A model generated the notes under the pieces. The model did not search any database and was not told the DNA's origin. It saw only the letters and a list, made by a program, of their open reading frames with translations. This document shows, piece after piece, positions 32,101 to 47,749 of a DNA stretch of 64,000 bases. Both the position numbers and the translations under genes were made by a program. Within the stretch, counting starts at the first letter, position 1. Each line of letters begins with the position of its first letter. Source of the stretch: Arabidopsis thaliana (Eukaryota > Streptophyta > Magnoliopsida > Brassicales > Brassicaceae); NCBI RefSeq assembly GCF_000001735.4, contig NC_003074.8:18235261-18299260 (forward strand), in the 5' to 3' direction.

Positions 32101-32448
32101 TCATCCGCGGTGGCGGTGGCGACAAACGAATAACACGGTTTATTGTCTGATCGTGGCTTGGGTTTGGGTATGTTTTCGGATAACCCATCATCCGCGGTGG
32201 CGGGGCGACAAACGAATAACACGGTTTGTTGTCTAACCGCGGCTTGGGTTTGGGTATGCTTTCGGATAATCCATCATCCGTGGTGGCGGTGGCGACAAAC
32301 GAATAACACGGTTTATTGTCTGATCGTGGCTTGGGTTTGGGTCTTTTTTCGGATAATCCATCATCCGTGGTGGCGGTGGCGACAAACGAATAACACGGTT
32401 TGTTGTCTGACCGCGGCTTGGGTTTGGGTATGTTTTCGGATAATCCAT
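32101..32448 (-). repeat. 87-bp coding tandem array in the first Pro-rich peptide gene
   Basis: Four units begin at 32448, 32361, 32274 and 32188 (minus strand), each coding for (M)DYPK..PNP...QT.NRVIRLSPPPPRM. Spacing is 87, 87 and 86 bp. The third unit carries a nonsense codon (32235-32233), and a 1-bp deletion lies between units 3 and 4. A degenerate fifth unit precedes them (METGTNPSHDQTTNGWGR). Confidence 0.9.
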
Positions 32449-32970
32449 CATCCGCGATGGCGGTGGCCGCGTAGGACGACCCCAACCGTTTGTTGTCTGA
32501 TCGTGGCTTGGGTTTGTGCCTGTTTCCATCATTTTCGGAATACTCTCTTCAACCTACATTATTTTTTTGGTTTGGTGAAAAAATTCACGATGGTTATCAT
32601 ATACAGATCTATTTTGAAGTGAGTGAAAATGTTGATTATTAATCAGAGAGAAAATTAAAATCTATGACAAATGTGAAATGTACATTTTGGTTAATGATAC
32701 TGCTTACCATATTTAGTGAATATTGGTCGGTGTGAGGAACTCCATCTTCATGGCTCTCTCCAAACCCTAAAAGCGAAAATGGAATTCAATAAACAACCAT
32801 ATTAATAGATTATAATTGTGAAAATGGTAATAATCAGAATAGATCTTTGATATTAAAAATGTAAGACTATCTAATTAGATGATATAAAACATTCTCAAAT
32901 TACTTGAAGAACACAATGGAAGAAGGAGCAAGAACGACATGAGAACCACCAGCTGCATCTTTGAAAACAT
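32233..32970 (-). CDS. Secreted Pro-rich repeat peptide precursor (multi-copy, C-terminally truncated)
   Basis: Exons 32970-32904, 32766-32708 and 32553-32233 join to 447 nt, giving 148 aa. Exon 1 is a signal peptide (MFSKMQLVVLMSFLLLLPLCSS). Exon 2 gives GFGESHEDGVPHTDQYSLNM. Exon 3 opens VEESIP and then carries tandem copies of a DYPK..PNPSHDQT-like motif separated by IRLSPPPPRM. It was probably longer: past the TAG at 32233 the array continues and, once a 1-bp deletion is allowed for, ends in PPPPRMN and TAA at 32096. That matches the PPPKMN ends of its paralogues at 41.7 and 44.5 kb. A TATA box (33037-33044) sits about 70 bp before the start. Annotated elsewhere, I believe, as extensin-like At3g49270, but it lacks SPPPP-Y extensin repeats. 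See findings for the PSY-like interpretation. Confidence 0.8.
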
Positions 32971-33160
32971 GTTTTTTTTTCCGAGAAAAAATATATATTT
33001 TGGTTTTGTTGTTTGGAAGAAGAACGCATGCTTCTCTATATATAGTAGACATAGTTCGTAGGCCAATGAACGCATACTGGCAGATGCGGACGTACAGCAT
33101 GGGGAAAGTAGGCACGTGCCTACTGTTTTTTGTTCTCCCTCGAATAGCTATATAAATTAA

Positions 33161-33416
33161 GACCATCTCCATCAGGCTAATACTGCGTGGGTTTCTCAAC
33201 AATATTATTTTAATCAATTTATAATAATTAAGTTATTTATTTAAATTTTAAACTATAAAAAAAAAGAATTGGGCCATTAATATAAAGACACGTGGAAAGA
33301 TATTATCTCTAAGTTTCTCAAACTAGAAACGTGTCTGACTCTCTCTCCTATTTTTTCATTATTTTATATTTTTTTGTCTCCAGATACTCTCTCAGATACT
33401 CCCGATGGAGATGCTC
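33161..33416. mobile_element. PIF/Harbinger-like MITE
   Basis: Termini GACCATCTCCATC (33161) and GATGGAGATGCTC (ending 33416) form inverted repeats with one mismatch in 13. They are flanked by the 3-bp duplication TAA (33158-33160 and 33417-33419). The GAGCATCTCCATCGG-type end plus TAA target duplication is typical of Harbinger MITEs in Brassicaceae. AT-rich and non-coding inside. Confidence 0.8.
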
Positions 33417-33785
33417 TAACAAAACAATTCAAGTAAAATCAAGAAGTGCTTTAGTCCAATTTTTTATTTATTTCACAACCATATAAATTTTATTTTTTAT
33501 CCAAAATTTTATAAAACCCAATAGACCATTGAAACGATGATTGGCCTACCATCATCGACCTTATTTTTATAGAAACAAAATTTCTTTCTCATTGATTCAT
33601 CGTAATACTATTTAGTATTTATTTTTAATATATGTAGCTATATAATTGTACTCTGGATTAAAAAAACATATTCTGGATCTTCCACTGTCTACTGGTGGGA
33701 AAATGGCTAAGTAAAGTAACTATGCACTACACATTTACTACAATTCAAACTAAATGTTTTGGTCCAAGATTTTCGTCTCTGAGAA

Positions 33786-33985
33786 TTAACATATTAATAG
33801 TGGAACATGTCATCTCAAGTTTTTAATGTCACGGTATTATACCACCAAACGACGAGCATAAACAACTTGGAAGGAGGCTGATCGAGGAGTTAGTTTGGTA
33901 AAAAGACAATTCCATAATCCATAAAAGAAAACCTTGATGTCCTGTTTCTCATGGTTAACTCAAAGAACGCTCACATCTCTTTATA
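33786..33985. repeat. Dispersed duplicate, copy 2 (partner at 30695-30945)
   Basis: Contains GAACATGTCATCTCAAGTTTTTAA, ACTTGGAAGGAGGCT, AGTTAGTTTGGTAAAA and GAAAACCTTGATGTCCT in the same order as the upstream copy, with a short insertion before GAAAACC. Its end abuts the reverse-strand LINE remnant. Confidence 0.75.
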
Positions 33986-33989
33986 GTGA

Positions 33990-34440
33990 GAACAAGTGTA
34001 GTTGCGGAATGGAAGAGTCCGTGAGTATGGGAACTAGGCAGCCCCATCTTGACGTGAATCTGTGGCCAACGAGACCACGAGATAGTGATGACCAAACTTG
34101 AGAGGAGTATGACCAGGAAAAAAAAGATGGTCCCTTGTCTCTACTTGTTCACTACAAAATACACAATTACTACTCGCTCCCACATTCCACTTTACCAATC
34201 TATCTCACGTAGCTAGGCCATTATGATTAGTAATTTTGAAATAGAGCTTAGATGTGAAGTTAGGGAACCATACATCCTTGTACCAATCAAAAATTGGATT
34301 TACTTGCTGAAATCAAATGCTGTGTGTCTTGCGAAGCAAACTTACAAGTGAATGAGTCATTTTTTCCTTCTCCAAAGAGGTTGATCCTTGCCGGTTGGTA
34401 ACTTGTTTCTTCTCCATGGAAAAAAATGTCCGTAAGTTAT
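33990..34440 (-). pseudogene. LINE zf-RVT remnant, minus strand
   Basis: The minus strand encodes IFDWYKDVWFPNFTSKLYF, then KITNHNGLAT, a stop, DRLVKWNVGASSNCVFCSEQ and VETRDHL. This is the plant LINE zinc-binding region (W...VWF....K..F, .RL..W, C.FC, E.RDHL). The in-frame TGA replaces the usual R/K before DRL. It faces the plus-strand LINE remnant starting at 34.6 kb. Confidence 0.8.
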
Positions 34441-34589
34441 TACTATTGAAACTAGGTCCGTCTTAATCTATGGGACGATCTTAGGCAAAACCAGTAAAAT
34501 GTTAAAGTTTCTTACTAATTTTTTTTTATCCAAACATTGGACATTTTTACTCTAACAAAAATTTTGAAATTGTTTTTGAACTTATGGCA

Positions 34590-35675
34590 AAAGCGAAGGT
34601 GGTTTAGGGCTACGATCAATTGAGGAGGCAAATAAAGTCTGCATATTGAAGCTAATATGGAGAATTCTTTCAGCGAGAAGTTCATTATGGGTTGATTGGG
34701 TTAAAAAACACCTCATAAGAGACGGCTCATTTTGGGCAGTGAAAGATAACACAACTAGCGGGTCATGGATGTGGAGGAAGATGCTGAAGTATCGGGAACA
34801 AGCAAAGATGTTCCACAAGGTGGAAGTGAAGAATGGGGACACAACTTCCTTTTGGTATGATTCATGGAGCTCAATGGGTGTCATCTATGAAAAGTTAGGA
34901 GATAGAGGCTGCATAGATATGGGAATTCCAAAAAACAGTATGCTTAGTGAAGCGATAAGTAAACCCCGAACAAGAAACCATCGACAAAGCTTCGTGAACC
35001 TCATTGAAGTTGAACTGCAAAACCTGCGAACAAATAGGCGAGAAACAGAACATGATATACCACTATGGAGAGGAAAAATGACTGCTACAGAAAGAATTTT
35101 GTATCCAAGGAGACGTGGCTGCAGATTCGTTCAACAAGGCCAGAGATGCAGGACTACAAAGCGATATGGTTCTCGGATGCAACTCCGAAGTATGCGTTTG
35201 TCACTTGGTTGGTGGTGAAGAATAGAATTGCAACAGGGAGAGAATGCTGAAATGGAACAAAAACGTGGGTACTAGCTGTCTTCTCTGCAACTATCCTTTG
35301 GAGACAAGAGAACATTTATTTTTCCAATGCCCTTATTCGAGAACGGTGTGGAGTGAACTGGCGGGAAGACTACTAGCTAGCAAATATACGGACAATTGGC
35401 TAGATATCATGAAGGAGTTAGTGAGTAAAGATCTTGACGCCACTACAAGGATTGTGCTTCGGTATGTGTTTCAAAACACGATACATTCTATATGGAGAGA
35501 GAGAAATGAGAGAAGACATGGAGAGACGCGCCATCGAGGACGGAGAAGATAATCAGGCTAATCGACAAAAACATAAGGAATCGATTAAGCACGCTAAGGG
35601 TGAGAGGTGAAGAGAAGTACCCAAGAGGAATCCAAGTGTGGTTTGCTTCAAGGCAAGATCAAAATCAAGGATAGA
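34590..35675 (+). pseudogene. LINE retrotransposon 3' remnant (RT C-terminus and zf-RVT)
   Basis: The plus strand encodes GGLGLRSIEEANKVCILKLI and WRILSARSSLWVDWVKKHL, then WMWRKMLKYRE, then VKNGDTTSFWYDSWS. After one frameshift it reads YAFVTWLVVKNRIATGRE, and after a second CLLCNYPLETREHLFFQCPY, SRTVWSELAG and IHSIWRERNERRHGE. This is the canonical 3' half of a plant LINE ORF2. Two frameshifts (about 35090 and 35245) and the missing catalytic RT and endonuclease make it inactive. A pseudogene locus may be annotated here. Confidence 0.9.
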
Positions 35676-35699
35676 TAAGATACACATTTGATCTATTTT

Positions 35700-37200
35700 T
35701 TTTAAAAAAGTTTGCATTTATATGTATAAACAGTTTATTTTTCTTTGAATATAATTTAACATTAAATTTTTTAAAAAAAAATGCCTATGTTGCCTACTCT
35801 TAGAGAAGCGCATAATGTATCTTTGGACTTTCGACAAGACCAAAAGTTCGACTCACACGATGTTTTTATAACAAATTTTAACCAAAACGACGTTGTTTTA
35901 TAATATATATGATGTTATATAGTCTGTTAAAGTTGAGTCTTATATTGCAGCCTTTGCAGGTGGAGAATAAATTTACCAAAAAAATTAAAAGTTGTGAATA
36001 TTTATTTGCAATTTTTCTTCGCTTTAGAAGTTTTTAAAAATTAGTATTATTAAACCGTAGTATTATTGAAAAATAATACTTTTTAGTTTTTAAAAAATGT
36101 TTCACACATGCAAGAATTTGAAGAAAAATCCGACTGCTAACCAAAATACTAAAATAGCGAATTAAACATGGGACTCATAACTTTTGTATTAAATGACTAA
36201 ACTAAAAAAGATGCAATTGAAAGAAAATGAATTGCATGTTTAATTGGTTGCACCAAAAAGTTTGTTTGGTGATAGGAAATAACTGATGATATAAATTTTC
36301 ACAAAATGACGACCGCTCCACCATAGTAACTACTCAAAATTTGTCAGTGATAATGAGCATGACAAACATGATTTATAAAGACACGGCGAGTCCCCAACAC
36401 CTGCAGCTCAACTAATCAAGTTTCTTGATATATGATACGCAACAAATTATCTTCAGTCCGTCGTCGGGATCCACACAAATACGAGGATGGACTTCGGTTA
36501 TGGTTCGCCTCTAGGAACTAGTTGTTTCAATCTCTTTACAAATCTTTTCTCAAAATAACATTTAAAATAAGGTTGCATTCATTGTACAAAGGTTTTTTGG
36601 TTGAATAAATTTTAAATTCATTCAAAAAAAAACATGATTTATAATCATGGAACTATAGTTACTATTTTAAAAAGTAATAAAGAACTACATGGTTATCCAA
36701 AGACGTGCGTCCCTTAATCATTGCATGTTTTTTCAATTTTTATCTTTTGTCTCAAAAGTTATTTTGTTAAAAATGTAATGAAATTGTTATCCTAGATATA
36801 CTCATGTTACAGACCACACGATCGTAAGCTTGTTAGTTAAAAAAAAAAACACTATTATGCCTACTTTATTAAAAAAAATCTAAGAGTCCACTCAAAAGTC
36901 AAAACACTCCAAACTCGCCTACCAAAAAAAAAAAAAATCACTCCAAACTTAAAATCCACTAAAATGAACCAAAATGCTTAGTACAAGATATCATCTTAAT
37001 TGCAATCGAACTACCTAATGCATTTGATTCAATATCTTGTTTCTTTTAAGTTTTAACTATCCACAAAGCCATGACTTGGGAATGTGATTGATCGATAAAA
37101 CTTTTTCATTTGATTCAATATCATTTTACTAACTATTCGGTTATTTTAAAAAGTTCGGTTCGGATGCGGTTTTGTTTTTACGGTTCGGTTCATTCGGTTA
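35700..37200. other. AT-rich intergenic upstream of ABIL2
   Basis: No gene recognised. The end of the stretch (about 37140-37200) carries three GGTTCGG/CGGTT repeats and leads into the T/C-rich leader of ABIL2. Confidence 0.5.
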
Positions 37201-38146
37201 TTTGCTTACCGATTTTTCTGCAAGAGAGCGCGTTTCGTTTGTCTCCGCAAACGATGGGACAAAGTGGGTTAAGTCTGAGGTTGTTTCTTCGACTTGTCTC
37301 TCTAGTCTCTATACCAACAACACTCAACGAGACAAGACCATCATCATCACTCACTTCCTTCCTTCCTTCAAATCTCAACTAAATCAATAGACATTCCTCT
37401 CTTTGTCTCTCTCTATCCAAATTTGAACTGTAACTGTCTTCAAAATCTTCATTTTTCTCAGACAAATTGGATCTCTCCTTGGAGCAGAAACACCCATTAA
37501 AGGAACAATAGAGAGAGTTTTGGATTGAATAATCACAGTTCCACAGGTTTCCTTCCACTCTCATTATCTTAAATTTCACTTAAAGGTCGAAACTTTTGGT
37601 CCACTGGTTTCATTATCTTCTTTTAAACACATCAATTTGTTTAGGATTTAACTTGTGATTTTGAATTGGTTTTACTACTTCTCCTCTCTCGATTTAGCAA
37701 GTTAAAAGCTTTTTTTTTTTTAGTGTTCTTGAGGGTTTTAGGGTACAATTTTGTTTCCTCAGGACTGGGTTTTGCTTTCTTGTTTCATATGTGTTTTATT
37801 GTTCTTGATGAATTCATTGTACATTATAAAATATTGTCTCAGCTATTGGTACACAGTTTTCTTTCTCCCTGGGAATTGTTTGTTAATTTTTAATAGAGTA
37901 CTAATAAAAGATTAGAAAATCTGTGGTTACTTTAGAGAGCTGTGGATTCTACTTGTTTGTTTGTTTCTTCTTATTGGATTAGTTATGGAGCAAAGTAAAA
38001 GCCTTGTTCATTTTCTTTGTTCATATGTAATAAAAACAACTAGTGATATACAAGTGTTCTTGGAAAATCTTGAATGAAACAGCTTTGAAGAAGACTGAGG
38101 TTTATCTTCCTCTCTGTTGAAAAAATAGAAGACTGCAGTGGCTACA

Positions 38147-39961
38147 ATGCCTGCGTCACATGAAGCTTCAAATTACGATGAGGTTTCTATGCAGCAAAGT
38201 ATGCTCTTCTCTGATGGTCTTCAGGTAGATTCTGAATTTGCAAAATATTGCCTAGTTTCTGATAAATTGTTCAAATCTCCATCTGACTTAGAAGGACAAT
38301 GCTATAATACCAAGCACATACTATCTTTCTATATGTGAAACCGATGACAAAAGTAAAATGATAATTAATGGTCTCTGTGATTGAAGATCCAAGTGTTGTT
38401 ACAATGCTGAATCATATCTTGTTTTCTAAAATCTTTGTAGGTTTATTTGACAATTAATTGAAAGGTTTTCTGCTCTTTTATTTCCTCAGGACTTGAAGAA
38501 TCTGCGAGCGCAGTTGTATTCAGCAGCCGAGTATTTCGAACTATCTTACACAACCGATGATAAAAAGCAGATGTGAGTTAGTATTAAGCAGCGCTTCAGA
38601 TTTATTGTGTCACAAAAAATTTCTTGGTTTTTCTCAGTAGTTGTTTCTCATGTTAAGTGCAGTGTTGTAGAGACACTGAAAGACTACGCTGTGAAGGCTC
38701 TGGTGAATACAGTTGACCATTTAGGCTCTGTTACATATAAAGTGAATGACTTTATCGATGAAAAAGTCGATGAAGTATCAGAGACCGAGCTGCGAGTATC
38801 TTGCATCGAACAGGTATAAAAAAGCTCCTAAAAACTTGTATTTATCCGTGAAGGTTTCTTTTTGGGGTTACTAAGTTGTAATTTTGTGTTTATGTTGGGA
38901 AAAATAACAATGGGATGGTGGTTAGAGGCTAAGAATGTGCCAAGAGTATATGGATCATGAAGGGCGTTCACAGCAATCACTTGTTATTGACACTCCAAAG
39001 TTCCATAAACGATACATCTTACCCGGTAAATTCTCTCTTTCTCGCACTCGGGTTAGAAATTTTCGATACTCACTAAGATGCAATCTTTATCAGCGGGTGA
39101 AATTATGACTGCTACAAATCTTGAAAAGCTTAAGTACTTTGGAAGCAGTTTAGAGGATGCAGATGATTGGAACCAATTCCGAAATGGTGAGTTTGTATCT
39201 TCTATGTTTCTGTTGTACACAATCCAAGATTCAAGATTTCTTACTAACTGATTGGTTTGCTCTTTTATAGCTGTTCGTGCTACAATCCGGGAAACGCCTC
39301 CACCACCTGTTAGGTAAATTATCCAAACGCTTGCTCAAGAAATAACACAACACACATTTTCAAACACAAGAACAAAACAATGAGACCTGATTGTCTTTGC
39401 AGAAAATCAACATCTCAGAGTTCATCTCCACGGCAACCACCTCAACGATCAGCAACCTTTTCGTTTACCTCTACCATTCCAAAGAAAGAACAAGGTAAAC
39501 ACCACAATCGCTTGGTTTTTTTCCGCTCGATACTCGATCCTTTATACATGTTTTCGTGTGATATAATCAGATAAGAGATCAGTTTCACCGCATCGGTTTC
39601 CACTACTAAGATCTGGATCAGTCGCTACCAGGAAGTCAGCATCAATCAGCCGACCAACGACACCAAGCAAGAGCAGATCTATAACTCCTATACGGGTATA
39701 AAAAGCTTCCATTGGAACAAAACTCCACCAGAAAATGTGTTTCATCAATTTACCTCTTCTTGATTCTTCTTCTTTTGCATTTTCCAGTATCCATCAGAAC
39801 CAAGAAGATCGGCTTCGGTCCGAGTCGCATTCGAGAAAGATAACCAGAAAGAAACAGAGCAGCAACAACCGAGCAAGAGCAAACGATTGCTCAAGGCTTT
39901 GCTTAGTCGACGCAAAACCAAGAAAGATGACACTCTCTACACTTTCTTGGACGAATACTGA
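38147..39961 (+). CDS. ABIL2: ABIL2, ABI-like subunit of the SCAR/WAVE complex
   Basis: Nine exons: 38147-38224, 38490-38572, 38663-38813, 38926-39025, 39094-39186, 39271-39313, 39403-39494, 39571-39695, 39788-39961. They total 939 nt and give 312 aa. The N-terminal helical half is the conserved ABI region ([39 protein letters not shown], then [13 protein letters not shown]). The C-terminal half is Ser/Pro/Arg-rich ([20 protein letters not shown]) and ends in a basic stretch and FLDEY. There is no SH3 domain, as usual for plant ABILs. Family knowledge: ABIL proteins sit in the WAVE complex that activates ARP2/3 actin nucleation and shapes trichomes and pavement cells. Likely At3g49290. The leader is long (CT-rich from about 37.25 kb) and probably spliced, but I could not fix its introns. 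Confidence 0.95.
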
Positions 39962-40314
39962 AATGCCAATACCGGTTTTTATTTGTGCAAGCGCTTTACT
40001 AAACCGGAAAATTGTGGATTTCCTATTTTTTCTTTTATTTTTCTATATTATATTTTATAATATAAATACACAAACTATACCAAAACATCGAATTTTTACC
40101 CATACAAAAGTCATAATCATGATTCGTGTTGTTATGAGATATAAAATTTCACGATCTGTACATCTTCTCGATTTGATATACTATGGTCATAGATTCGATC
40201 ATTAGCACCAAAGGGATATATATTATATATATTAGACATATACATATTAACATATATAAGAGAAAAATTTAACATAATACATTTACAACCAATCGTAAAT
40301 GCTACGTTGCATGT

Positions 40315-40437
40315 CTATTGACACCCATCGGGACATGCTTTGTTTTTCGGATATACGACATGCATGACGGGCTCTTGGTGTATCTGCATCACATGCCGAA
40401 GAAACAAGAAAGTGAGGATGTTCAAAATTTTATTCAT
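40315..40437 (-). CDS. Short Cys-containing peptide ORF, paralogue of the 19.1-kb locus (possibly pseudogene)
   Basis: 40-aa ORF starting MNKILNILTFLFL and ending VYPKNKACPDGCQ with TAG. It aligns with the 19128-19477 gene at both ends: MN..LNI.TFL at the N-terminus and CP.GC at the C-terminus. The DNA beyond its stop still reads TCNVAF, where the paralogue reads TCEYAT, so TAG replaces a TTG codon. The paralogue's intron is absent here; a ATGTGATGCAG remnant sits where the 3' splice site was, suggesting a deletion that fused exon 1 to the end of the intron. The signal peptide is consequently shortened. Whether it is expressed is unknown. Confidence 0.4.
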   Translation of the reverse strand: MNKILNILTFLFLRHVMQIHQEPVMHVVYPKNKACPDGCQ

Positions 40438-40499
40438 TTGTAGGTGGAACTTTGTTACGAAGAAAGAGATCGAATGAAAAAAAAAATGTTTGAGTTTCG

Positions 40500-41640
40500 T
40501 AACTTATAAATAATCTTATGGTTCAGTCAAATATATGGTAATCTAATGGTAAAAAACAATGTTGAGTTTCACAAAAACATGTGTCAAGTAGAGATTCCTT
40601 TTCTTTTTTTTTGGCAAGTAGAGTTTGGTTGATTGAATATAAAGTAGCTATAATATCCAGAAAAGCTTACATTAAGGATCCTTTTTTTTTTTTTTTTTTG
40701 ATGGAAGAATTAGTAATTTTTTGTATAACTATTGAAGGTTGAACATGTATAGGTAATTTACATATACAATAGTTGAATGTCATTACTAATAATAATATAA
40801 ATCTTAAGTACTAATTTTATTATTAACTATACCATAATATGGTATATTGATGTTATTAGATATAGTAAATTTACAATTGATAAAGTAGTGGATGCCTTTT
40901 TCTCTTTTGGTTCCATATGGTAGATCATTTATGTACATCATAAAAATATTCACCAAATAATAAGTACTTTGGATGAATACATATATTAATATATTATGAA
41001 GTGCTTTTGAACTCTTTGGATCTTATATTTAATTATTATGCATAGGTTTCAACGGTAGATCAAAAGTTTCAACCTTTTATTAATGGTGCATCAGTTTTAG
41101 TTGTGAGATGTAGGAAAATCATATGGGTGGCAGTAATGTTTATACGTTACAGTAATGTGTAACAAAAATCAGTAGAATCTGGTATTTTTAAATAGATATT
41201 AATTGCGTTGAAAACTTTGAGTACAAGAGTCAACCATACGTTTCAAGAGTGATTATAATATGAATTATAAGTAGAAATTGTTTTCTTTAAATTTCATACA
41301 TATTCGACTTTCCGGTTTCGGTTTCGAACTTATGAGCTATAATCTTGTCATGTAAACATTTTTTAAATCAATCTTTGTCTATTCAAATTCCTTAAAATTA
41401 AAGAGAACAACAATCACTAAACGATTATTGAAAAATGAAAATATCGGTAAGCATTGCATCATCATTAATTTTACATGTAGATTAAATTTGTTAAATCAAA
41501 AGTTTAATATTCATAAATAGGAAAAAAATCAAAGATCAAACAATTGACCAATTTTTCCAAATTTACTCTTTTATATTTGATTGATTACTTTGATAGTACA
41601 TATCATAGAATCATCATATTTAAGTTTTTCTTTTGCTTCA
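40500..41640. other. AT-rich intergenic
   Basis: No gene. Contains a 19-bp poly-T run near 40681. The last 100 bp are the start of the duplicated 3' flank shared with the 44.4-kb region (TGATTA(C/G)TTTGATAGTACATA). Confidence 0.5.
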
Positions 41641-41707
41641 CATGAATACTAGTTCTTCTCACGAGCATGATTTAACGATATTACATATTTTTGCTTCATC
41701 ATGATTC

Positions 41708-42330
41708 TTAGTTCATCTTCGGTGGCGGTGGCGGTGACAGTGGCGGTGGCGGTGGGGGAGGAAAACCATAACCGGGTTTTGTTGGATCGTGTTTCGGGTC
41801 TGGACCTGGTTCCGGATAATCCATGATCGTTGGAATACTCTCTTCAACCTTTATTACATATTAACAATTACTTTTTGGTTCTTAACAAAAAAAAAAACAA
41901 TATTACTTTTTGGTTTGGTAAAAAAATACCCAATAATTATCATATGCTAATTTCTTTCAAATGAGTGAAAATATTTATTGATTAAATTTATTTGTCAATA
42001 AAAATATGAGAGAAACTAAAATCTATGAAAATAAACTTTTTATTAAATGAGATTGCTTACCTTGTTTAAGGAATTTTGGTCGGTGTGAGTAACTCCATGG
42101 CCTTCTCTAAACCCTACAAAAAATGTAAAACTATTTACAGAACCTGTTTGAATATAAAATAAACAGTTTTTTCACACCTTTAATCATGCAATTGTAACCA
42201 TTCCTTTACTTAATTAGATGTTTAAACAAGATAATCCATATACAAATATACAAATTGATTTACCCGAAGAACACAATGGAAACAGAAGCAAGAACGACAT
42301 GAGAACCACCGGCTTTATCTTTGAAAGCAT
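41708..42330 (-). CDS. Secreted Pro-rich peptide precursor, PSY-like core (single copy)
   Basis: Exons 42330-42264, 42113-42061 and 41848-41708 join to 261 nt, giving 86 aa. Signal peptide MLSKIKPVVLMSFLLLFPLC; spacer GFREGHGVTHTDQNSLNK; exon 3 begins VEESIPTIM, then the core DYPEPGPDPKHDPTKPGYG, then a poly-Pro tail ending PPPPPKMN. Core and layout match the neighbours at 32.2, 44.5 and 47.1 kb. No Cys in the mature part. The DYP..P.PDPKHDP block resembles the tyrosine-sulfated PSY1 hormone; a precursor of a secreted growth peptide is a reasoned guess, not a known function. A TATA-like tract (TATATATATA) lies about 45 bp upstream of the start. I believe this is At3g49300, listed only as a proline-rich protein. 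Confidence 0.8.
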
Positions 42331-42399
42331 TTTTTTGTTTGTTTTAGTTTTGTTGTTTGGACTCACGCTTCTATATATATATGTGTACATGTAGTTACG

Positions 42400-43330
42400 T
42401 TTTGGTGGAAAAATGTGTTGGCAGATTGATGATATTGACACATGCATTTCGCATTTACTACAATTCAAACTAAATCTTTTGGCGATTTTATTTTTAAACA
42501 TATTTATAATTCATCAAATTAGTAATTAGTTTCCAAAAAATATCAGATCATATTTATTAAAAAGATAATAATTAATTAATGAGGAAAGTAGGAAACTATA
42601 TTATGATTAAAAAGAAAAATACTCATGAAGAATGATTTTAAATTTTTTGATTAATGATTAAATACATTGAAAGATAGATTTTTGGGTTAGTAGATGAAAC
42701 ATTAATTAAAAATCAGCTTTTGTTGATGAGAAACCAATCTTATGAATCCTCCACTAGGGGCTGCAGAGGCAGATAGATGCATAGTTTGTAAGGAAAGAAT
42801 GAGGTCTAATGTTGCTGAGATTAGGATCCTAAGTGTTTGCGGCTCCTCACCAAGAAACTTGAGCAAAGGCCCAAAAGAAGTCCATGAGTGTCTCCCAAGA
42901 AACTAATGCACAACAAACATCTCCAATTCCATGAATCCCCATGCTACGCTCTTGAGTGAACCAGAAGTATGAAGTGGAAGAGGAGAGATGAAATTCTTCT
43001 CTGGAGATTGATGATATTGCCTCCTTGAAAAAACTATTAAAAGTAAGTTTGACCTCCAGATTTTCCAACATAAGCTAAGCTACTATATGTAATGTCCACA
43101 TCCATATGCAATTATCAGTGTTTTTAGAGCCTCTTGTCTACTTTTGTGTTCAACATCACTCAAACTAAGCTACTTGCGAGGTTCAATTGATAATCGTTGC
43201 TACTCTTGTTAATTTGTGTACCCTATTAATCTTTTAATCATCTCGTTTTGAGAATGATGAGAATCAACATGGATAGCATAATCGAATTGAGACCCTGAGA
43301 ACGATGAGAATAAAGATAAATCAAATATGG
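42400..43330. other. Intergenic; duplicated flank and a degraded piece of the NYN-type gene
   Basis: 42410-42710 is duplicated at about 45250-45550 (CACTTACTACAATT.AAACTAAATCTTTTGG and GGAAAGTA...ATTACGATTAAAAAG-like blocks). 42740-43080 has higher GC content and contains a minus-strand open frame (SMGIHGIGDVCCALVSWETL) that may be a downstream exon of the broken NYN gene. I could not match it to a family. Confidence 0.4.
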
Positions 43331-43389
43331 CTCACAGACTCATATAGAACAAAAGTACGATCCAAGAAAACAAAAAGAAAAACAAACCA

Positions 43390-43834
43390 TATTGTCTAGG
43401 ATCCAATTGTGTAGAGCCTGGGATATACACGATAACAGTCTGAAAACCAGCATTTCTCAAGAAGCGTAAACTCTTACCGTAAGCTATGTCACAGCTGATT
43501 ACAACAATCACACCTTGAGGGCCGTGTGACTTTTTCCAATTCTCAATTCTGTTGCAAATCTCGTACCTGTTGCCGTCGTGCTCTTCTTTCAAAACCACAG
43601 GTACAAACTCTACCCCAGTAACAATGAGCCTGTCGACGATGTCCACACTTACGTACTTACCTCATATCCCTTTACTGTAAGTGCCTCAACGTTTAGGGAA
43701 CCGCAGAATCCTCAACCATTCATGGCCGACTTTATGGTCTCTAAGACTCCGAGAGCGTCGCAGCCACTTGGAAGGCCACCGCTACCTAAATCCCACCACA
43801 CAACGATGGGACATCCACGATTCTGCTCCTCCAT
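43390..43834 (-). pseudogene. NYN-domain (limkain/MARF1-type) gene fragment, disrupted
   Basis: Starts MEEQNRGCPIVVWWDLGSGG and continues GCDALGVLETIKSAMNG, followed by an in-frame TGA (43714-43712), then GFCGSLNVEALTVKGYE and a 1-bp frame change. It goes on with VDIVDRLIVTGVEFVPVVL, EICNRIENWKKSHGP and GVIVVISCDIAYGKSLRFL. The order (VWWD, I.SAL...G..G, VD..L, V.ISCD..Y...L..L...G) fits the plant NYN RNase-fold family often called putative endonuclease or glycosyl hydrolase. The first strand has lost the usual ENC after VWWD (here LGS), removing a likely metal ligand. Nonsense and frameshift indicate a pseudogene. Confidence 0.65.
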
Positions 43835-44489
43835 TGCTTGCGAATTAGGCTTTGTTTTCTAGGGTTTTCTCCCAATTTTAGTGACCTAGACCTTTTTATA
43901 ATGAATTGTATTTTTTTGTTTTTTATACTTCTTTTTCTTTCCTTTTTCCCCAAGCTTTACGCATTAGGCCTCATTTTTCTTCCAACTATTGGCCAAACAA
44001 ATTAAAAGATCAGCCTTGTGGTAAAGCCCAAACCAACTTGGAAATTTTAAAAATTAGAACCGGTCTAATGGAAAATGGAAGAATTGAACCAAATCAACCT
44101 CGAACATTGATATTAAGAAGTGAAAGTAAGATCCTCTCTCGAGAACTTGTTCAACCTTATTGTGCATAGGTTTTCAACGGTGTATCAAACATTTAAAATT
44201 TGAGTAGGTGTGGTGAAGCATTTCAAATTTTCATTAATGGTAAGATGCGTAATTTTCCCGATCAAGTGATATCTAGATCAAATTTGTAGAATCATAAGTT
44301 TATTATGTTGATAACTAAGAAAAAATTCAATGATTCAAACAGTTGACCAACTTTATATTAGCATTTTATTTATTTCATTGATTAGTTTGATAGTACATAG
44401 CATATAGTTTTTTGCTTCACATGCATACTAGTTCTCCGCGCGAGCATGATTAACATAATTACACATTTTTATTTGCTTCATCATGATTG

Positions 44490-45125
44490 TTAGTTCATCT
44501 TTGGTGGAGGTGGCGGAGGACGACCATAACCGGGTTTCGTTGGATCATGTATTGGGTTAGGGCCTGGTTCTGGATAATCCATGATCGTGGGGATACTCTC
44601 CTCAAGCTATATTACATATTAACAGTTACTTTTTAATTTGGTAAAAAATATCACAATATTTATCATATGCTGATTTTGTTTTCAAAAGACTGAAAGTACT
44701 TATGGACTAAATTTCTTATTAGTCAATAAATATGAGAGAAACTAAAACTGTATGAAAATAAGCATTTTATTTAATGAGATTTCTTACATTGTTTAAGGAA
44801 TATTGGTTGGTGTGAGTAACTCCATGGCCCTCTCCAAATCCTACAAAAAACAAGTAAATGCAATAAACAACCATATTATTTGATTGAAATCCATAACTAG
44901 CTGACTAGAGAGATATTGGATATATGTTAAAAATGTAACACGATTGAATATAAAATAAACAGTTTTTTCACACCTTTAATCATGCAACTGTAACCATTCC
45001 TTTACTTAATTAGATGTTTGAAAATATAATCTATATACAAATATGCAAATTGATTTACCCGATGAACACAATGGAAGCAGAAGCAAGAACGACATGAGAA
45101 CCACCAGCTTCATCTTTGAAAGCAT
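44490..45125 (-). CDS. Secreted Pro-rich peptide precursor, PSY-like core (tandem duplicate)
   Basis: Exons 45125-45059, 44840-44788 and 44606-44490 join to 237 nt, giving 78 aa. Signal peptide MLSKMKLVVLMSFLLLLPLC; spacer GFGEGHGVTHTNQYSLNN; exon 3 LEESIPTIM, core DYPEPGPNPIHDPTKPGYG, tail RPPPPPPKMN. It differs from the 41.7-kb copy mainly by a shorter Pro tail. Introns and about 300-400 bp of flank on both sides are also similar, so the two arose by a recent duplication of about 1.2 kb. The broken NYN gene lies between them. Open throughout, with good splice sites. Probably the locus listed as At3g49305. Confidence 0.8.
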
Positions 45126-45559
45126 TTTTCTCTTGTTTTAGTTTTGTTGTTTGGAACTAACTCATGCTTCTATATTTATATGCGTACATGGGTAGTTACC
45201 AGTTGGCGGAAAAATGTGTGTTAGCAAATTGATGATATTTACCACTATGTATTCGCCCATAGGTTTTCAATAACTAAGCACTACGCACTTACTACAATTG
45301 AAACTAAATCTTTTGGTGAAAGATTGTATTTTCAGACAAGTAACATATTTATAATTCATCAAATTATCAACTAGTTTCTCAAAAACTATAAATCATATCT
45401 AAAAAAAACAAATCAGGAACTAATGATTACATAATGAGGAAATTAGGAAAGTATATTACGATTAAAAAGAAAAATACTGATGAATACTGATTTTCAAAAT
45501 TTTGATTAATGATTAGATACATTGAAAAATAGATTTTTTGGTAAGTACATGTATTACTC

Positions 45560-47040
45560 ATGCATCTAAAAAATAAATTAATAAAAAAGAGAATAAGAAT
45601 ATGATGTACTCATATATATGCATCTATATATATATAGAAATATTTGTATACATATGTATATATAGTTATACTATCTTAATCTATCTAATGTATACATTTT
45701 TTATTAATATATAAGTTGTAAAAAAATCAATATGTGACTACTTATGGAGACTCGAGGTCACCAAAAATGTAGTTATTGTCTTATCGACCGTCAAATGATT
45801 CATTTAGACTCGACATCATTTTTTATTTTTTTTTAAACTAAGTGTGAAAATTATTGTATTAACAACGATGTCGTATCATAATTTGAGTTCAAACTCGTAT
45901 TAATGTGCACGTATGAGCTATCAAGAAAAAACACATTAAAACTTGTGACATTCTTTTCTTTTTTTCATTAATTAATGACGTTCCCCATCACTATAAACGG
46001 TTCGATTTCTTCTAGTACAAGGAACATCATACATTTACTTGGACGTTTGATTACTTTTTTTTTTAATTTATCTTTCAGAATTCAGAGTTATACAAAATGA
46101 TGTGTAGGATATTCATGTTCATATTGTTTCGTTTTTATAACCGAAGAATAAGAAAACCGGATTGGACAATCGTCATTGGGGTGAGGCCGGAATATCTCAC
46201 CTAGGTTTGAACCGGTTCAGTATAATATCTCACGTTACCTTGGTTCAATAAAACCGCAATGAGCTTTTTAAACAAAAAATAAAGCAACTAGCTAGTTTAT
46301 TCTATTTAATAGTAGAAAACCAGTTAACAAAACAAATGTGACACATGACATGGTGTACCTATAACTTCTGATATTGTGATATATAACTATAAATATTTAT
46401 ATAACAACTTTTAAGTTTAAGTTAAATTGATCAAAACAATATTTTCAATACTTTGTCAAATTTCTAGTCACCCTATTTCCTGTCTTATTTCGCTTAGTAG
46501 AGTCTCCTTATCGAGTGCATTTCAACGTCTTACCAAGAGCTTTGCTTATGGTATAGTCGATTATTTAGTTGGTTCTCGAATGTTTATGTTTTTTTTTCTT
46601 TCTTTGGCATGTGATCATCTTTTTAGAATTCGCTTAACCTTAACTTTCATTTCTTAAAATGATGTATTGACATGCATTCTTATATATATATATAAAATTC
46701 TATCTAGATTTGCCTATTGAAAAATGAAATTGATGAACAAACAACAATGAAAATATTTACATTAGAAAAATAACTAGTTGTCGAATTCCTATCTTTGAAG
46801 CATTTTAATTTTCTTATTACGACAATTCCTTAGAAAAGTGAAATAACAATAACCATATCACTAGACGTTGCATATCAATATATTTTAGTGTTTTCAAAAT
46901 CATATTTAAAATAAATTCTGTGATTTATCGAATCATGGGACTATTAACTAGTTAGAATTTATTGATGATTATAAGGATGGATTGAACCAATATTACATAT
47001 ATTTTTCTCCACTATATTATAGAATGTTGCATCATCAATA
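45560..47040. other. AT-rich intergenic
   Basis: No gene recognised. Holds TATA microsatellite-like tracts at about 45610-45670 and 46681-46695. The 46427-46657 open frame has no domain or signal that I recognise. Confidence 0.5.
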
Positions 47041-47063
47041 TATATTACATATTTTGTTCTCCA

Positions 47064-47749
47064 CTATGGGTTCTTCTTCTTCATCCTAGGACGCGGGGCA
47101 TGTGGTCCATGTGGACGTCCAGGATAACGTCGTCCAGGTTCGTTGGGACCAGGATAGTCCATCAGATTCTCAATACTATTTTTAATCTGTATTACATCAT
47201 TTTTTTCCCACCAACAATTACTAAAATTTGATTTATTTATTTTAACAAATAAATAAATTAATTCATTTAATTTAAATCATGACATGTTATTATATAGTCT
47301 ATAAAATATGAAAATTAAACGTGTTTTATTTTATTGCTTACCTTGTCTGAGGAATATTGATCGATATGAATAGCACCAAGGTCCTCCTTAAACCCTAAGA
47401 AAACAAATAGAGAATAACAAAAGAATATGCAAAATTAATTAATAAACGGGGTATATATTTATGTATTGCGATAAAACATATAATTAAACGTTGACAAGAA
47501 AAATAATACTATTAAACTTTATGTGTGAAATCCTTAAGAACCAGACTATGACTTGGGCACCAGTACTACTTGTATGGATCATTTTTTAAATCAAACAACA
47601 ATTTTTTTATATGGCATTCAAAGTTGTTATTATTTAAACTTAATCAATATGTTCTTATTAAAATATCGATTTTATTTATTTAACTTGAGATTACCTGAAG
47701 AACACAATGAAAACATGAGCAAGAACGAGAAGAGAACCACCAACTTCAT
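47064..47749 (-). CDS. Secreted Pro-rich peptide precursor, divergent member
   Basis: Exons 47749-47695, 47394-47342 and 47186-47064 join to 231 nt, giving 76 aa. Signal peptide MKLVVLFSFLLMFSLCSS; spacer GFKEDLGAIHIDQYSSDK; exon 3 IKNSIENLM followed by DYPGPNEPGRRYPGRPHGPH and a basic tail MKKKNP. Intron phases and the HxDQYS block match the three paralogues, but the HDP step and poly-Pro tail are replaced by a Gly/Arg/Pro-rich region. This suggests either a different mature peptide or relaxed constraint. Probably the locus listed as At3g49307. Confidence 0.75.

What the first reader, a model, noticed from the sequence alone, without database searches (positions are those of the whole stretch)
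32233..47749. Four-gene cluster of small secreted precursors with a PSY-hormone-like core
Seen: four minus-strand genes (32.2-33.0, 41.7-42.3, 44.5-45.1, 47.1-47.7 kb) share three exons with the same intron phases, a signal peptide, an H.DQYS/N spacer, and an exon 3 starting .E/N.SI...MDYP. Two cores read DYPEPGPDPKHDPTKPG and DYPEPGPNPIHDPTKPG. Known: mature PSY1 is DYGDPSANPKHDPGVPPS, with a sulfated Tyr after Asp and hydroxylated/glycosylated Pro. The D-Y, central P, N/D-P-x-H-D-P positions coincide. Inference: these annotated 'proline-rich' or 'extensin-like' genes may be precursors of PSY-type tyrosine-sulfated signalling peptides, forming a local, fast-evolving cluster. I cannot tell whether any has already been catalogued.
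Basis: partly seen in the sequence, partly recalled or inferred. Interest (0 to 1): 0.8.

Follow-up and report, generated by a model that had tools for sequence, protein, structure and literature searches.

The report
Arabidopsis PSY7/PSY9 peptide-hormone gene cluster
Two of these four neighbouring small genes are already named precursors of sulfated plant growth peptides (PSY7 and PSY9); the other two are their diverged tandem copies, one of which has multiplied a core-like unit inside a single gene.

Summary
The PSY reading is right for two of the four genes, but those two are already in print. The window lies on contig 3 of a 119.66-Mb genome, taken to be Arabidopsis thaliana. The gene at 44.5-45.1 kb is PSY7/At3g49305 (core, length, both published primers); that at 41.7-42.3 kb is PSY9/At3g49300 (core, length). 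The outer genes (32.2-33.0 kb, labelled At3g49270; 47.1-47.7 kb, labelled At3g49307) are tandem copies with significant DNA similarity and the same 3-exon, phase-1/phase-0 layout. No paper passage I saw calls them PSYs. A core profile from the seven PSYs outside the cluster ranks the four genes 1-4 among 59,147 window 13-mers, but the outer two score below all seven known PSYs. At3g49270 lost DYP at the original site and carries an 87-bp array with three translated DYPK units, cut by a stop codon. At3g49307 keeps DYP but not the N and H of the motif; AT3G49307 is reported as a chalazal-endosperm marker. What is new is modest: two uncatalogued PSY-like paralogues, one multi-unit, activity unknown.

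The parts
41708..42330 (-). PSY9 (At3g49300), 3 exons 42330-42264 / 42113-42061 / 41848-41708, 86 aa
   Evidence: Model; 86 aa and core DYPEPGPDPKHDP agree with PMC11534595 Table 1
41783..41821 (-). PSY9 core DYPEPGPDPKHDP
   Evidence: Profile score 34.7, rank 1 of 59,147 six-frame 13-mers; 0 of 20,000 shuffles
44490..45125 (-). PSY7 (At3g49305), 3 exons 45125-45059 / 44840-44788 / 44606-44490, 78 aa
   Evidence: Model; both published PSY7 qPCR primers map at 44551-44570 and 44495-44514; 78 aa and core agree
44541..44579 (-). PSY7 core DYPEPGPNPIHDP
   Evidence: Profile score 34.4, rank 2; 0 of 20,000 shuffles
32233..32970 (-). At3g49270 ('extensin-like'), 3 exons 32970-32904 / 32766-32708 / 32553-32233, 148 aa; PSY-like paralogue
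   Evidence: Model; blastn to the PSY9 and PSY7 loci across exons and introns, E 1e-30 and 6e-28 within the window. Locus number recalled from gene order; supported by peptide LSPPPPR, assigned to AT3G49270 in PMC7503369, which this gene encodes
32101..32516 (-). 87-bp x 4.8 tandem array in exon 3 and beyond; units MMDYPKxxPNPSxxQTxNRVIRLSPPPPR, three translated units with DY (the third cut by the stop)
   Evidence: TRF; units and coordinates
32320..32358 (-). best PSY-like unit of At3g49270, DYPKKDPNPSHDQ
   Evidence: Profile score 17.9, rank 3; 7 of 20,000 shuffles reach it
32233..32235 (-). TAG stop inside the fourth of five copies (CAG in the other four); beyond it the array runs on to ...PPPPRMN stop, where PSY7 and PSY9 end in PPKMN stop
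47064..47749 (-). At3g49307, 3 exons 47749-47695 / 47394-47342 / 47186-47064, 76 aa; diverged paralogue
   Evidence: Model; blastn exon 1 84% over 64-65 bp to the other three (E 7e-15 to 2e-14), exon 2 region 74% over 107 bp to PSY9 (E 1e-10) and 74% over 78 bp to PSY7 (E 3e-7). Locus number recalled from gene order, not shown by a call
47121..47159 (-). DYPGPNEPGRRYP, the position of the core in At3g49307
   Evidence: Profile score 14.7, rank 4; 31 of 20,000 shuffles reach it

Best explanation
A tandem cluster of four genes derived from one PSY-type sulfated-peptide precursor gene. PSY7 and PSY9 are the intact and most similar pair: a secreted precursor whose exon 3 carries the core is sulfated by TPST at the Tyr after Asp, trimmed by proteases (subtilases are the suggested ones), and the peptide binds PSYR1-3, whose stress signalling it represses so that growth proceeds. 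At3g49270 and At3g49307 are copies whose cores have drifted further. At3g49270 lost DYP at the original site and multiplied a core-plus-Pro-tail unit, now cut by a stop codon. At3g49307 keeps the DYP start only and is expressed in chalazal endosperm. Shown here: gene models, tandem origin, core similarity, repeat array. From papers: PSY7/PSY9 naming, PSYR action, expression. Inferred: sulfation, processing and activity of any peptide from these four genes, and all function of the two outer genes.
For: PSY7 and PSY9 named with these cores and lengths; both PSY7 primers in place; PSYR1-3 reported as receptors for all nine PSYs and as repressed by PSYs. A profile from seven outside PSYs ranks the four genes 1-4 of 59,147 window 13-mers. 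Tandem copies by blastn, PSY7-PSY9 80% over 595 bp including promoter sequence. Intron phases 1,0 match the length-fitted models of PSY6 and PSY8 and the best PSY5 model, whose middle and last exons hold the published PSY5 primers; PSY1 and PSY2 have a phase-1 intron after the signal peptide. PSY9 is reported in inflorescences, siliques and seeds, AT3G49307 in chalazal endosperm.
Against: Outside core and signal peptide, none of 20 comparisons of a cluster gene with PSY1, 2, 5, 6 or 8 stands out (lowest 54 of 2000 shuffles, next 326). PSY7 and PSY9 are not among the mature AtPSYs listed as identified (PSY2, 3, 5, 6, 8; PSY5, 6, 8). The two outer cores score below all seven known PSYs. A genome search with the At3g49307 protein at E<=10 returned only its own three exons, and the PSY7 search reached At3g49307 exon 1 only at E 0.3. 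PSY7 expression is called minimal. PSY3 and PSY4 gene models did not resolve, so exon layout was compared for 5 of 7 outside PSYs.
Confidence: 0.88

Rival explanations
1. The genes encode small proline-rich or extensin-like wall proteins, as annotated, and the PSY-like core is incidental.
For: Annotated as proline-rich or extensin-like; Pro 12-24%; two SPPPP motifs in At3g49270 and one in PSY9.
Against: No SPPP motif in PSY7 or At3g49307 and no YxY motif in any of the four. No extensin match in Pfam at E<=1 (that scan gave no PSY family either, also not for known PSY1 and PSY8, so it tests the extensin side only). Between PSY7 and PSY9 the core is kept while the Pro tail differs in length. Two are accepted PSYs.
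Confidence: 0.05
2. The two outer genes are decaying copies without peptide-hormone function.
For: At3g49270 has lost DYP at the original site, has a stop inside the array and a 1-nt deletion after it, and a repeat-family element in its promoter region. Both break the PSY motif.
Against: Reading frames and splice sites are intact up to the stop. NG86 dN/dS is 0.29-0.59 for the five pairs that involve them, though the At3g49270 alignments include poorly aligned repeat sequence. Specific expression is reported. One phosphopeptide in a floral study is assigned to AT3G49270, but it is only 7 residues long and was seen in one or two of three replicates.
Confidence: 0.4
3. The cluster core converged on the PSY motif from an unrelated small secreted protein, so it works like a PSY without common descent.
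For: No significant similarity to PSY1, 2, 5, 6, 8 outside the core. PSY-like peptides are known from Xanthomonas and root-knot nematodes, presumably acquired or evolved independently.
Against: A phase-1 intron after the signal peptide in the five outside PSYs modelled, and a phase-0 second intron in the three of these with three exons. A phase pair alone is modest evidence.
Confidence: 0.12

Closest known systems
PSY family (plant peptide containing sulfated tyrosine), Arabidopsis PSY1-PSY9
   Same: PSY7 and PSY9 are listed members. Hydrophobic leader, short precursor, core starting DY with [AP] at 7, H at 11 and P at 13, phase-1 intron after the leader.
   Different: At3g49270 has several core-like units and Q for the last P; At3g49307 lacks A/P7, N8 and H11.
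PSY5, PSY6, PSY8
   Same: Three exons with phases 1 and 0 (PSY6, PSY8, PSY5 best model).
   Different: No detectable similarity of the propeptide outside the core.
RGF/GLV/CLEL peptides (sulfated, mostly starting DY)
   Same: DY start and prolines (cores listed).
   Different: Those listed end mostly in HN or NN rather than H.P; not scored here.
Extensins / proline-rich proteins
   Same: Pro-rich stretches, one or two SPPPP motifs in two of the four genes.
   Different: No YxY motif and no long SPPPP array.

Membership tests
PSY family: PSY7 | Core fits DYXXXX[AP]NXXHXP (PMC7913133) | tested here: met
   DYPEPGPNPIHDP fits; profile score 34.4 within the known range 28.8-39.3
PSY family: PSY9 | Core fits DYXXXX[AP]NXXHXP (PMC7913133) | tested here: not met
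   DYPEPGPDPKHDP has D for N8, one position off. It is nevertheless listed as PSY9, has D1, Y2, H11 and P13, the columns invariant over the nine listed cores, and scores 34.7
PSY family: PSY7 and PSY9 | Precursor of 60-200 aa, motif in second half, signal peptide (criteria of PMC7913133) | tested here: met
   78 and 86 aa, core starts at residue 50, hydrophobic N-terminus; signal peptide by reading only, no SignalP
PSY family: PSY7 and PSY9 | Tyrosine sulfation and release of a mature peptide | not testable with these tools
   Not among the mature peptides listed
PSY family: PSY7 and PSY9 | Perception by PSYR1-3 | not testable with these tools
   Reported for all nine PSY homologues in PMC10629525 (passage), citing a paper I did not see
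PSY family: At3g49270 | DYXXXX[AP]NXXHXP | tested here: not met
   Best unit DYPKKDPNPSHDQ misses only the last P; the other two DY units also lack H11. Score 17.9
PSY family: At3g49307 | DYXXXX[AP]NXXHXP | tested here: not met
   DYPGPNEPGRRYP lacks A/P7, N8 and H11; score 14.7
PSY family: At3g49270 and At3g49307 | Descent from the same gene as PSY7/PSY9 | tested here: met
   blastn to the PSY7 and PSY9 loci over exons, introns and flanks for At3g49270, exon 1 and exon 2 region for At3g49307; same exon layout. Protein search did not link At3g49307 to the others
Extensins | Repeated SPPPP with Tyr cross-link motifs (recalled definition) | tested here: not met
   0-2 SPPPP-type motifs, no YxY in the four proteins

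The most novel reading that the evidence does not exclude
The cluster is a reproductive-tissue workshop for new PSY-type signals. At3g49270 is a multi-core precursor that releases up to three sulfated DYPK peptides from one protein, and At3g49307 makes a diverged sulfated peptide in the apical chalazal endosperm that tunes PSYR (or a related receptor) at the mother-seed interface.
Probability: 0.2. Interest if true: 0.62.

Novelty: new member of a known kind. Interest (0 to 1): 0.33.

Why it matters
For PSY7 and PSY9 nothing new is claimed. If the two outer genes still make active peptides, the PSY family of the best-studied plant would be larger than the nine listed, one precursor would carry several cores, and a marker gene of the chalazal endosperm would gain a testable signalling role. 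It also bears on 'proline-rich' and 'extensin-like' labels and shows how a hormone core can be amplified or lost inside a tandem cluster.

Tried and rejected
Extensin/proline-rich reading: rejected for want of SPPPP/YxY arrays and of an extensin match in Pfam. RGF/GLV membership: considered from the cores listed, not tested. Similarity of propeptides to other PSYs outside the core: tested, nothing significant in 20 comparisons. Splice models: PSY3 and PSY4 did not resolve, so exon comparisons use PSY1, 2, 5, 6, 8 only. For PSY1 two candidate models fit the length; the one used (one intron) ranked second and first and agrees with the precursor as I recall it. For PSY6 one search gave no model and one search gave one. 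The PSY5 model (83 aa) is not the published 104-aa isoform, and a model with other phases scored nearly as high (5.53 against 5.64) but lacks the exon that holds the forward primer. Splice-site weights, profile background and pseudocounts are recalled or chosen, not fitted. Alignment identities come from global alignment with gaps left out, of A+T-rich DNA, and are inflated; the blastn results are the ones to trust. YN00 failed for two of six gene pairs. The genome searches score only the best candidates and did not return the known PSYs outside the window, so distant relatives could be missed. Literature searches with locus numbers, with PSY7/PSY9/PSYR, and with multi-PSY terms led to no passage that calls At3g49270 or At3g49307 a PSY; most of the 25 rows listed of 13,707 were off-topic, and most subscription journals are not held. 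Papers were seen as passages or single sections; of PMC10519359 I saw part 1 of 2. Structure prediction was not tried. No plant genome other than the window's own was searched, so orthologues were not tested.
Full report
Where it is. The window is G000:C3:18235261-18299260 of a genome of 119,662,809 bases in 7 contigs.

What is there. Four minus-strand genes were modelled with three exons each, GT..AG introns, phase 1 then phase 0. The proteins are 148, 86, 78 and 76 aa. The 148-aa model was first mis-set by one base and corrected; its end, 32233, agrees with the start given in the finding.

Two genes are catalogued. PMC7913133 (passages and section 14) lists PSY7 as At3g49305. Its two PSY7 qPCR primers lie at window 44551-44570 and 44495-44514 (in all, 13 of 14 PSY1-7 primers were found, each in the expected locus; the PSY3 forward primer was not found). 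PMC11534595 Table 1 (passage) gives PSY7 At3g49305, 78 aa, DYPEPGPNPIHDP, and PSY9 At3g49300, 86 aa, DYPEPGPDPKHDP, citing Ogawa-Ohnishi et al. 2022, which I did not see. Both agree with the window. PMC10629525 (passage) says PSYR1-3 are receptors for all nine PSY homologues. PMC10519359 (part 1 of 2 of the text) describes PSYs as repressing PSYR signalling so that growth proceeds. So the central claim of the finding is correct for these two, but known.

How strong is the core. A 13-column profile from the seven PSYs outside the cluster was scored on all 59,147 six-frame 13-mers without a stop in the window. Ranks 1-4 are PSY9 (34.7), PSY7 (34.4), At3g49270 (17.9) and At3g49307 (14.7); rank 5 (11.5) is the At3g49270 repeat copy beyond its stop; the best hit outside the cluster is 7.4. 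Leave-one-out scores of the seven known PSYs are 28.8-39.3. Shuffles of exon 3 that reach the observed score: PSY9 0, PSY7 0, At3g49270 7, At3g49307 31, of 20,000 each. The two outer genes therefore resemble PSYs more than chance, but are not PSYs by core alone.

Common origin. blastn inside the window joins all four loci (E-values are for the 64-kb window). PSY7 and PSY9 match over promoter sequence, exons and introns (80% over 595 bp, 74% over 663 bp). At3g49270 matches the PSY9 and PSY7 loci at E 1e-30 and 6e-28. At3g49307 matches the other three in exon 1 (84-85% over 64-65 bp) and PSY9 and PSY7 around exon 2 (73.8% over 107 bp, 74.4% over 78 bp). Genome searches with the PSY7, At3g49270 and At3g49307 proteins gave no further relative; the matches outside the cluster had E of 0.44 or more (4 matches). 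Against this, the At3g49307 search found only itself, and these searches did not return the known PSYs outside the window, so they would miss relatives that share the core alone.

Relation to other PSYs. Models fitted to published lengths give PSY1 and PSY2 one phase-1 intron just after the signal peptide, PSY6 introns of phase 1 and 0 and PSY8 the same. The best PSY5 model, not of the published length, is also 1,0, and the published PSY5 primers fall in its second and third exons. PSY3 and PSY4 did not resolve. This fits descent from a three-exon PSY gene. Outside core and signal peptide no similarity to PSY1, 2, 5, 6 or 8 is detectable: in 20 comparisons the lowest count was 54 of 2000 shuffles (At3g49307 with PSY1), the next 326. 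PMC7913133 also reports much lower similarity of whole precursors than of the core.

At3g49270. The original core position reads MMETGTNPSHDQ: a 9-nt gap takes out DYP. It is followed by 87-bp units (TRF: 4.8 copies, 88% matches): DYPKTYPNPSRGQ, DYPKKDPNPSHDQ, DYPKAYPNPSRG-stop, and beyond the stop GYPKTYPNPSHDQ ending PPPPRMN. RG and HD alternate along the copies, which suggests growth by a two-unit step (inference). A 1-nt deletion follows the stop within the same unit. AT3G49270 was reported up-regulated in a transcription-factor quadruple mutant studied for transmitting-tract development and discussed as possibly post-pollination-related (PMC7219087, passages). A phosphopeptide LSPPPPR was assigned to it in a floral study (PMC7503369, passages); the peptide is short, may not be unique, and was seen in only one or two of three replicates.

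At3g49307. The locus number is recalled from gene order. The gene keeps MDYP at the right place but reads DYPGPNEPGRRYP. PMC13197225 (passages and section 12) reports AT3G49307 as a small secreted-protein gene marking apical chalazal endosperm; its main text contains neither 'psy' nor 'sulfated'.

Rates. NG86 dN/dS lies between 0.22 and 0.59 for the six pairs; YN00, where it ran (4 of 6), gives 0.41-0.70. In the 18-codon PSY7/PSY9 core stretch 6 codons differ silently and 2 change a residue. The genes drift quickly but are not free of constraint (inference).

Verdict. PSY7 and PSY9: known PSYs. At3g49270 and At3g49307: diverged tandem paralogues that I found called PSY in no passage seen, best called PSY-like; whether they make active peptides is open.

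Noticed in passing
33148-33422: About 275 bp with inverted ends (arms 33160-33176 and 33401-33417, 88% complementary) has at least 32 matches in the genome including itself, the best three others at 77-86% over nearly full length; a small repeat element about 180 bp upstream of the At3g49270 ATG. It lies between the gene and a distal block (TTAGTTT[GC]AATTGTAGTAA) that sits at -783 in At3g49270 but at -143 in PSY9 and -182 in PSY7 and was not found upstream of At3g49307.
   Followed up: partly
42650-43870 (-): Between PSY9 and PSY7 lies a broken reading frame starting MEEQNRGCPIVVWWDLGSGGLPSG, with frame changes and stops. By recall it resembles plant NYN-domain proteins; two pieces gave no Pfam support.
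   Followed up: partly
41720-41755: A CGGTGG x 6 hexamer run encodes part of the Pro tail of PSY9, the tail being 8 residues longer than that of PSY7.
   Followed up: no
32192-32532: RG/HD alternation between successive repeat copies of At3g49270, a sign of dimer-wise expansion of the array.
   Followed up: no
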